DNA of 64,000 nucleotides. Source: Planctomycetota bacterium (GTDB lineage: Bacteria > Planctomycetota > Phycisphaerae > UBA1845 > UTPLA1). Numbering within the stretch: position 1 is the stretch's first letter; each line of letters begins with the position of its first letter. The stretch is taken from contig JAATGM010000042.1 in NCBI GenBank assembly GCA_015654675.1, forward strand, positions 1-64,000. Direction: 5' to 3'. The position numbers and the translations under genes are program-made. Below are positions 34,096 to 41,909 of this stretch, one piece after another. Under the pieces are notes generated by a model that was given only the letters and a program-made list of their open reading frames with translations, was not told the DNA's origin and ran no database searches.

Positions 34096-34869
34096 CTAGT
34101 TCGTCACCCGCCGCACCGCCGCGACGACATCGTCCGGGTCCGTCCGGTCCTGGACCTTGGTCGCAATGTGCCGCCACAAAATCTTCCCATCGTGATCAAC
34201 CAGGATGTCCGCCGGAATCGCGATCTCGCTGCCCCCCGGCCCGCCCCCTTTGTGAACCAGCCCATATTCCCGAATCACCGTGCGATCCGCATCGCTCAGA
34301 ATCGGGAACGGCAGCTTGTTCCGTGTGACAACTCTCGCCGACTCAGCCGGTGAGTCCACCGACACGGCGATCATCCGCACCCCCATCTTCTGCAATTCGT
34401 CATGAATAGCCCCGAGCCCGCGGAGCTCCGCAACGCAGGACATTCACCAGTGCCCGCGATAGAAAATCAGCAGAGCCCGGTCCTTTTCTCTCACACTACG
34501 GAGCGAAACCGGCGTTCCAGTCTGATCAGGCAGCGTGAAATCCGGTGCGATGGACGCTGTCTGAATCGTCGTCGCCGCCGGCAACCCCATCGCAAACAGG
34601 AACATCGCCGTGAAGGCGGTTCCCAGCAACAGCGTCAGCGAGGACATGATCCATGTCCCCCACCGGCCGCGCCGCCATGCAACCAGGGCCAGCAGGCACC
34701 CGACTCCAAATAGCACGAACGCCGGCAAGGCCGTCCGTCGCAGAAAGGCGTTGTCGATCAACAGCATGTAAACCGGAAGCGCCCCCAGGGCGAAAAGCAG
34801 TCCCAGCAACGCCAAAGTCCACCCACGCCTGGGTTTCTTCAAATCGGTCTGAACAGGTGATTCGGACAT
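34096..34869 (-). CDS. candidate selenoprotein: membrane-anchored peroxiredoxin-like protein with UxxC motif
   Basis: Read with UGA (34444-34446) as selenocysteine, the frame gives one 257-residue protein. Residues 1-100 hold three membrane helices (about 17-38, 48-66, 71-94), placing the rest in the periplasm. The AhpC/TSA domain starts at SIAPDFTLPDQTGTPVSL. Then comes LIFYRGHW, the TGA at residue 142, and MSCVAELRGL: relatives read FYRGxWCPxC here, so the TGA falls exactly on the first Cys of WCxxC, giving UxxC. The second half (VDSPAESARVVTRNKLPFPI, ILSDADRTVIREYG) completes the fold. A SECIS-like hairpin follows the TGA. With an ordinary stop there would be two half-genes, neither containing the complete active site. 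A nonsense mutation is the alternative. Confidence 0.85.
34418..34433 (-). promoter_or_regulatory. candidate bacterial SECIS hairpin of the peroxiredoxin-like selenoprotein
   Basis: Downstream of the TGA the minus strand forms TTGCGG-AGCT-CCGCGG, with four G-C pairs and two U-G pairs. The apical loop begins 16 bases after the TGA and has G at its second position. Published rules for bacterial SECIS, as I recall them, ask for a loop of 3-14 bases, 16-37 bases from the UGA, with a G in the first two bases; this meets them at the lower limit of distance. The short tetraloop and palindromic core make it weaker than the second candidate. Confidence 0.6.
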
Positions 34870-40402: not shown

Positions 40403-40566
40403 AAACGGGCGTTCCTACCGCAATCAGGTCGGACTCCCGTCGTTAATGTGGGAAGAATGCACCCTGTAGAATCCCCGACCGTACAAATCTGATGAATAGT
40501 AACCGGCCGCTTCGTTCCGCATGTGTCGGCGCGACGGTCGGAATGAGTCTCTCAGGAGTTTCGATC

Positions 40567-41196
40567 ATGCGGAAAAGTTGGAAGGTAATGGGCCTGGCGG
40601 CCTCGTTTGCCGTCGCGACAAGCGTCGGAATCGCAGTCGCCGGCGACAACCACAAACATGCCAAGGGCGACAAGAGCACCCATGCGGCCGCCGCCAAGAT
40701 CGGCCAGCCGGCCCCTGCCTTCTCGCTCACCGGCTACGATGGCAAGACCTACGAGCTCTCGAACTACAAGGACAAAATCGTCGTCCTCGAGTGGTTCAAC
40801 AAGGATTGCCCCGTCTGCCAGAAGTACATGCCCACCATGAAGGAGACCGCCGAGAAGTACGCCAAGAAGGGCGTCATCTGGCTCGCGATCGACAGCACCA
40901 ATAGCCGCACTGCCAAGCAGAACGCCGACGTTGCCAAGGAAGAGAAGATCCCCTATCCGATCCTCTCCGACTTCGACGGCAAGACCGGCCACAGCTACGG
41001 CGCGACCAGCACGCCACACATGTTCGTCATCAACAAGGGCACCCTGGCCTACGCCGGCGCCATCGATGACAGCAAGGGCCACGGCGAAGCCAAGAAGAAC
41101 TACGTCTCCGACGCCCTGGATTCGGTCCTGGCCGGCAAGCCCGTCGCCACCGCCGAAACCAAGTCGTTCGGCTGCAGCGTGAAGTACAAGAAGTAA
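40567..41196 (+). CDS. exported redoxin with C-terminal Cys (Cys form of a tandem pair)
   Basis: The 209-residue exported thioredoxin-fold protein has a signal peptide (residues 1-25, cleavage near GIAVA). Its redoxin domain carries FSLTGYDGKTYELSNYKDK, the active-site motif FNKDCPVCQKYMP (CxxC), YPILSDFDGKTGHSYGA and a cis-Pro TPHMFVI. The C-terminal FGCSVKYKK holds a third cysteine (C203, codon TGC at 41173-41175), which could resolve or relay the disulfide. ATG 40567 follows CAGGAG at 9 bases. It is adjacent to a paralogue (41310) in which this Cys codon is TGA. Confidence 0.9.
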   Translation: MRKSWKVMGLAASFAVATSVGIAVAGDNHKHAKGDKSTHAAAAKIGQPAPAFSLTGYDGKTYELSNYKDKIVVLEWFNKDCPVCQKYMPTMKETAEKYAKKGVIWLAIDSTNSRTAKQNADVAKEEKIPYPILSDFDGKTGHSYGATSTPHMFVINKGTLAYAGAIDDSKGHGEAKKNYVSDALDSVLAGKPVATAETKSFGCSVKYKK

Positions 41197-41309: not shown

Positions 41310-41909
41310 ATGATTCGCCGACTGTTTTCGACCGGTGCGATTCTCACAATCGCCGCGGCCCTCATCGCCGCCGACAAACCCGCCGCTGAGAAACCAGCCG
41401 AGAAAGCCCCGAAGGTCGCCAAGCTGGGCAAGCCCGCCCCGACATTCAAGCTCAGCGACTTCAGCGGCAAGTCCTACGACCTCGCCGACTACCAGGACAA
41501 AATCGTCGTCCTTGAGTGGTTCAACAAGGATTGCCCATTCTGTAAGATGTTCTGCGAGGACCTTAAGAAAACCGCCGCCGACTACGCCACCAAGGGCGTC
41601 GTCTGGCTCGCGATTGACAGCACCAACTTCCGCAAGAATGAAGAAAACGCCGCCTACGCAAAAGAGCACAAGATCGACTATCCGATCCTCAGCGATTTCG
41701 ACGGAAAAGTCGGCCGGCAGTTTGACGCGAAGACAACACCTCACGTCTTCATCATCGATAAGGGAAAACTCGTCTACGCCGGCGCATTCGTCGACATGGG
41801 CAAAAAGAAAACCTACGTCGCCAACGCCCTAGATGCCCTTCTCGCCGGCAAGCAGCCAAGCCCGTCAAAAACAAAGCCGTTTGGCTGACCGGTGAAGTAC
41901 AAGAAGTAG
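41310..41909 (+). CDS. candidate selenoprotein: exported redoxin with C-terminal selenocysteine
   Basis: Reading UGA at 41886-41888 as selenocysteine gives a 199-residue protein ending FG-Sec-PVKYKK with stop TAG at 41907. The tandem paralogue ends FGCSVKYKK, so Sec193 sits exactly where it has Cys203, and the five codons after TGA (VKYKK) are still conserved. The body has a signal peptide (residues 1-21), redoxin fold FKLSDFSGKSYDLADYQDK, DCPFCKMFC, YPILSDFDGKVGRQFDAKT and cis-Pro TPHVFII. The ATG at 41310 follows AAAGGAGG. A hairpin with GG in its loop follows at 22 bases. An ordinary stop would remove only seven codons but leave conserved codons behind it. Confidence 0.85.

What the first reader, a model, noticed from the sequence alone, without database searches (positions are those of the whole stretch)
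34096..34869. Peroxiredoxin-like gene split by a TGA at the first Cys of its WCxxC motif
Two ORFs in the same frame (34444-34869 and 34096-34443) together give one membrane-anchored AhpC/TSA protein of 257 residues. The TGA is the only interruption and falls where family members have FYRGxWCPxC, giving W-Sec-x-x-C. The downstream hairpin begins its loop 16 bases later with G at position two. The two halves are each incomplete; read together the whole fold is present.
Basis: partly seen in the sequence, partly recalled or inferred. Interest (0 to 1): 0.92.

Follow-up and report, generated by a model that had tools for sequence, protein, structure and literature searches.

The report
Membrane-anchored selenocysteine redox protein
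A gene that looks broken by a stop codon is almost certainly one intact gene in which the bacterium reads that UGA as selenocysteine, giving a membrane-anchored redox protein; relatives in dozens of genomes keep the same UGA and the RNA hairpin that recodes it, but the general kind of protein is already known.

Summary
In detail: on the minus strand, 34096-34869 is one frame of 257 codons interrupted only by TGA at 34444-34446, at the first Cys position of FYRGxWCxxC (here W-U-M-S-C). It is a selenoprotein gene, not a pseudogene. The genome has selA, selB, selD and tRNA-Sec(UCA). In the order, 36 of 114 genomes carry a homologue and every one has exactly one in-frame TGA; the 30 read all have it at this codon. 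Sec forms continue across the phylum, with nested Cys exchanges. A SECIS hairpin follows in 50 of 52 Sec genes (synonymous shuffles: mean 9, maximum 18); its two main registers occur in 0 of 83 Cys homologues. The protein is three transmembrane helices plus an AhpC/TSA-fold domain whose active site is ResA-like (UxxC, Pro in place of the peroxiredoxin Arg). Best reading: a periplasmic, membrane-tethered Prx-like thiol:disulfide oxidoreductase, a subfamily of the known Prx-like UxxC selenoproteins. Enzyme activity is inferred only.

The parts
34096..34869 (-). Complete selenoprotein gene, 257 codons plus TAG stop, read with TGA = Sec
34444..34446 (-). UGA Sec codon, residue U142 of W-U-M-S-C
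   Evidence: exactly one in-frame TGA in all 36 homologues of the order, at this codon in all 30 read
34410..34425 (-). Conserved SECIS hairpin, CUCCG[CGGGCU]CGGGG (nt 22-37 from UGA; extends to 7 bp with AG/CU), loop 23 nt after UGA
34420..34431 (-).
34591..34824 (-). Membrane anchor: three predicted transmembrane helices (residues 16-37, 41-66, 71-93), hydrophobic segments also present in relatives; R-rich loop between helices 2 and 3
34174..34551 (-). AhpC/TSA (redoxin) domain, residues 107-232, with U142, C145 and P219

Best explanation
It is an intact selenoprotein gene. SelB with Sec-tRNA(UCA), held by the stem-loop just downstream of the UGA, reads UGA 142 as selenocysteine, so the ribosome makes one 257-residue protein instead of stopping after 141. 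The product has three N-terminal membrane helices and a redoxin domain that, by the positive-inside rule, faces the periplasm. The W-U-x-x-C motif sits at the N-terminus of a helix opposite a conserved Pro, as in ResA/TlpA-type thioredoxin-fold proteins. The selenolate of U142 probably attacks a disulfide or oxidised substrate, and C145 resolves it through a selenenylsulfide that is then reduced by an unidentified donor. Shown: machinery, conserved UGA, conserved hairpin, Cys exchange. Predicted: fold, topology. Inferred: reaction, donor and substrate.
For: Sec machinery: selB (340 bits joined, cut-off 242), selA just downstream (518 bits), selD (376 bits, itself with an in-frame TGA), tRNA-Sec anticodon TCA (67 bits, cut-off 47). 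Codon: exactly one in-frame TGA in 36/36 homologues of the order, at this codon in 30/30 read, never TAA or TAG, and in most of the matches across the phylum. Coupling: 33 of 36 carriers have selA; the three without are 75-89% complete assemblies. Cys at the same position in 83 homologues, with Cys forms nested in the Sec clade (L051, L137+L149, L145). SECIS: register A has 18 cells with two-sided changes and a covariation score reached by 0/500 shuffles; 44 of 52 Sec genes have a full register A or B against 0 of 83 Cys genes; 50 of 52 with a third register, against 9.3 +/- 2.9 (max 18 in 300 sets) when codons are swapped for synonyms. Leu at +7 is CTC in 27/30, while two conserved Leu before the UGA are mostly CTG (19/30, 22/30). 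Protein selection: changes concentrate at third codon positions both before and after the TGA. Fold: AlphaFold mean pLDDT 86.8, redoxin domain 91-98; nearest PDB folds PrxQ/Bcp and AhpE, ResA also near; WUMSC aligns with WCKPC of ResA and P219 with the Pro of its LPT, while PrxQ has Arg there.
Against: No protein or expression data. The anchor has moderate model confidence (pLDDT 63-78). No conserved gene neighbour names a reductant or substrate. C145 also sits where PrxQ has its peroxidatic Cys, so peroxidase activity is not excluded. Register A counted over all 48 sequences scores about as well in covariation when slid by one column, because the family uses more than one register. The third register was defined after looking at these same sequences, so the 50 of 52 count leans towards it.
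Confidence: 0.95

Rival explanations
1. Pseudogene or sequencing error: a real stop splits a dead gene.
For: Only that a standard reading gives two incomplete ORFs.
Against: Exactly one TGA in all homologues of the order, never another stop at this codon; both halves under protein-level selection; conserved hairpin that resists synonymous drift.
Confidence: 0.01
2. Two separate functional genes: a membrane protein and a short soluble half-domain started at ATG 34443.
For: ATG follows the TGA directly in the window.
Against: The codon after TGA is ATG in only 5 of 30 relatives; the others have CTG, CTT, CCG, ACC, ACG, ATC, GTG or GCG. The split would cut the redoxin fold at its active site.
Confidence: 0.01
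3. Read-through with an ordinary amino acid (Cys, Trp or Arg), by code change or suppression.
For: UGA stands for the Cys of homologues.
Against: 8 of 11 long window ORFs end in TGA, so TGA is a stop here; full Sec machinery; SECIS present.
Confidence: 0.01
4. Selenoprotein as claimed, but acting mainly as a membrane-bound peroxidase rather than a disulfide oxidoreductase.
For: PrxQ/Bcp and AhpE are the closest solved folds; C145 aligns with the peroxidatic Cys of PrxQ and E148 is kept.
Against: Sec stands at the Prx Thr, and the invariant Pro219 at the Prx Arg, as in ResA.
Confidence: 0.3

Closest known systems
Prx-like thiol:disulfide oxidoreductase selenoproteins (PF00578, UxxC/UxxU; listed as predicted with high confidence in PMC13188914; 'Prx-like 1' of PMC2398784)
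   Same: PF00578 domain with a single Sec in UxxC.
   Different: This group carries a three-helix membrane anchor and FYRGxWUxxC; the passages of those papers that I read do not mention either. The window protein reaches no NCBIfam cut-off.
SelL / SelL-related redox protein (NF040769)
   Same: Best-scoring NCBIfam model; Prx-like fold.
   Different: SelL has UxxU (own knowledge); here UxxC. 67.8 bits against a cut-off of 120.
PrxQ/Bcp peroxiredoxins (PDB 2cx3, 3hjp)
   Same: Closest solved fold.
   Different: Thr/Ser-x-x-Cys plus Arg in PrxQ; Sec-x-x-Cys plus Pro here.
ResA / TlpA membrane-tethered thiol-disulfide oxidoreductases (PDB 4nmu)
   Same: WCxxC at the same place, Pro opposite, anchored to the membrane outside the cytoplasm (anchoring of ResA from own knowledge).
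   Different: Three TM helices here; Sec instead of Cys; domain closer in sequence to PrxQ.
E. coli fdhF SECIS
   Same: Apical loop AGGUCU (own knowledge of the structure), identical in many family members; the 44-nt sequence was confirmed to lie in fdhF.
   Different: Window loop is CGGGCU; 23 nt rather than 17 nt from UGA.

Membership tests
Bacterial selenoprotein | In-frame UGA at a position where homologues have Cys | tested here: met
Bacterial selenoprotein | SECIS: apical loop 3-9 nt, stem 4-16 bp, G in first two loop positions, 16-37 nt from UGA (model in PMC13188914) | tested here: met
   Loop CGGGCU, 6 nt, 7 bp, 23 nt; conserved with covariation
Bacterial selenoprotein | selA, selB, selD and tRNA-Sec in the genome | tested here: met
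Bacterial selenoprotein | Sec present in the protein | not testable with these tools
   Needs 75Se labelling or mass spectrometry
Prx-like UxxC selenoproteins (PF00578) | PF00578 above gathering score with UxxC | tested here: met
   104.5 bits against 26; U142-x-x-C145
Prx-like UxxC selenoproteins (PF00578) | Thiol:disulfide oxidoreductase activity | not testable with these tools
   Inferred from UxxC and Pro219
SelL / NF040769 | Score above curated cut-off | tested here: not met
   67.8 against 120
SelL / NF040769 | UxxU motif | tested here: not met
   UxxC; C145 invariant in A1
Peroxiredoxin (PrxQ/PrxU) | TxxC or TxxU with catalytic Arg | tested here: not met
   Sec at the Thr position, Pro219 at the Arg position; PrxU model 43.6 against 270
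Membrane-anchored redoxin, domain outside the cytoplasm | Odd number of TM helices, positive N-terminus and second loop | tested here: inconclusive
   Three helices predicted; K+R 4.2 in loop 2 against 1.0 in loop 1 and 1.0 after TM3; prediction only

The most novel reading that the evidence does not exclude
A membrane-tethered Sec redoxin subfamily, Sec in every homologue found in the order, in which the SECIS moves between at least three overlapping stem registers as the coding sequence changes (ELRGL, ELVGL, ELQGL): a natural experiment on how SelB-recognised hairpins evolve inside a conserved reading frame.
Probability: 0.55. Interest if true: 0.55.

Novelty: new member of a known kind. 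Interest (0 to 1): 0.45.

Why it matters
Standard gene callers split this gene, so a conserved membrane redox protein is probably missing or broken in the annotation of many genomes in this phylum. The family gives a large natural set of SECIS elements with covariation and register changes, and nested Sec/Cys exchanges, useful for testing how Sec is gained and lost and for training Sec-gene finders.

Tried and rejected
Rfam on the whole window found nothing at gathering scores, so no ready SECIS model applied. Folding 81 nt around the site gave no excess stability (z -0.11; 47 nt from the UGA gave z -2.63), so covariation and synonymous shuffles were used instead. A generic SECIS rule with 5 bp also passes 26 of 83 Cys genes, so that rule alone is too weak. 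Predicted gene neighbourhoods in 20 relatives, compared by eye, showed no constant partner. Pseudogene, two-gene and code-change readings were rejected (see rivals). The Pfam hit to cytochrome bd subunit II (E 0.00065, below cut-off) was taken as a chance match of membrane helices. Literature searches for selenoproteins in Planctomycetes or Planctomycetota found no description of this group; that phylum was a guess of mine and the organism was not identified.

Full report
Observation. On the minus strand, 34869 to 34096 is one frame with a single internal TGA at 34446-34444. Read through, it gives 257 residues with FYRGHW-U-MSC. PF00578 runs across the TGA at E 4.6e-30.

Sec machinery. The genome (62 contigs, 96% complete; the window is the start of contig C50) has selB (340 bits joined, cut-off 242), selA immediately downstream of it (518 bits), selD (376 bits, with its own in-frame TGA) and a tRNA-Sec with anticodon TCA.

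Conservation of the codon. Of 114 genomes in the order, 36 have a homologue at E <= 1e-20 and every one has exactly one in-frame TGA. In the 30 read in full it lies at the same codon, always in FYRG[HFY]W-U-x-x-C, and never as TAA or TAG. 33 of the 36 carriers have selA; the three without are 75-89% complete assemblies. In a sample of 392 genomes of the phylum the Sec form continues well outside the order, with members that keep hydrophobic N-terminal segments but have Cys at the position (L137, L145, L149). Among 80 loci in other bacteria the position is Cys; that search used a Cys pattern, so it shows that Cys homologues exist, not their share. A tree of 105 domains groups most Sec forms, with Cys lineages nested among them and a few Sec forms among the Cys group; six changes of state are needed.

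SECIS. Sequences were compared without gaps from the UGA. The conserved element is CUCCG[NGGNYU]CGGAG at nt 22-37 (register A), with two-sided changes such as CUUCG/CGAAG and CUCCA/UGGGG. Members with ELVGL use GGAGCU[CGUNG]GGCUCC (register B), and several members with ELQGLQ use CUGCA[AGGUU]UGCAG. A full register A or B is present in 44 of 52 Sec genes and 0 of 83 Cys genes. With the third register it is 50 of 52, against a mean of 9.3 and a maximum of 18 in 300 sets where codons were replaced by synonyms; the third register was defined on these same sequences. Conserved residues in the stem keep unusual codons: Leu +7 is CTC in 27/30, Gly +11 is GGA in 20 of 22, Gly +9 is never GGC. In the window the stem is 7 bp with loop CGGGCU, 23 nt after the UGA, within the published bacterial model (PMC13188914). 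The loop AGGUCU of many relatives is that of E. coli fdhF (sequence confirmed in fdhF; loop assignment from own knowledge).

Protein. AlphaFold with 35 homologues gives helices 16-37, 41-66 and 71-93 and a confident redoxin domain. The nearest PDB folds are PrxQ/Bcp and AhpE, with ResA also among the best. Across the family P97, F136-G139, W141, U142, C145, E148, L149, P219 and R242 are among the invariant columns. In alignment with PrxQ (2cx3), U142 stands at the Thr/Ser position, C145 at the peroxidatic Cys and P219 at the Arg of AKRAVFI; with ResA (4nmu), WUMSC meets WCKPC and P219 meets the Pro of LPT. The roles of the Prx Thr, Cys and Arg and of the thioredoxin cis-Pro are established knowledge of those families. 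The fold is peroxiredoxin-like but the catalytic set is thioredoxin-like, which favours disulfide exchange over peroxide reduction. Charges (4.2 K+R in the second loop, about 1 in the first and after TM3) put the domain outside the cytoplasm. No constant neighbour points to a partner.

What it is. Bacterial Prx-like UxxC selenoproteins of PF00578 have been catalogued for years (PMC1794560, PMC2398784, PMC13188914). This gene meets those features. It fails the SelL and peroxiredoxin tests. The window protein reaches no NCBIfam cut-off, and the other members match the same general models. I found no description of a membrane-anchored FYRGxWUxxC selenoprotein, but the library lacks most subscription papers and I could not query NCBI's annotated proteins, so absence of a record is weak evidence. 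I file it as a new subfamily, that is a new member of a known kind.

Noticed in passing
G000:C50:151547-151912 (L180, about 950-1650), same contig, outside the window: A second likely selenoprotein: a TlpA/thioredoxin-like protein with DFWGFW-U-GGC and the frame open on both sides of the TGA.
   Followed up: partly
L017 1531 (G000:C1): The genome's SelD is itself a likely selenoprotein (NCAG-U-AGK) with a hairpin GCUCCC[UGU]GGGAGC just after the UGA, its loop 14 nt away, slightly nearer than the published model.
   Followed up: partly
window 40492-41196 and 41310-41888, +: Two neighbouring thioredoxin-fold proteins with WFNKDCPxC, ordinary Cys forms, possibly tandem duplicates.
   Followed up: no
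family alignment A2, nt 18-37 after UGA: The SECIS changes stem register within the family together with the amino acid at ELxGL (R, V or Q).
   Followed up: partly
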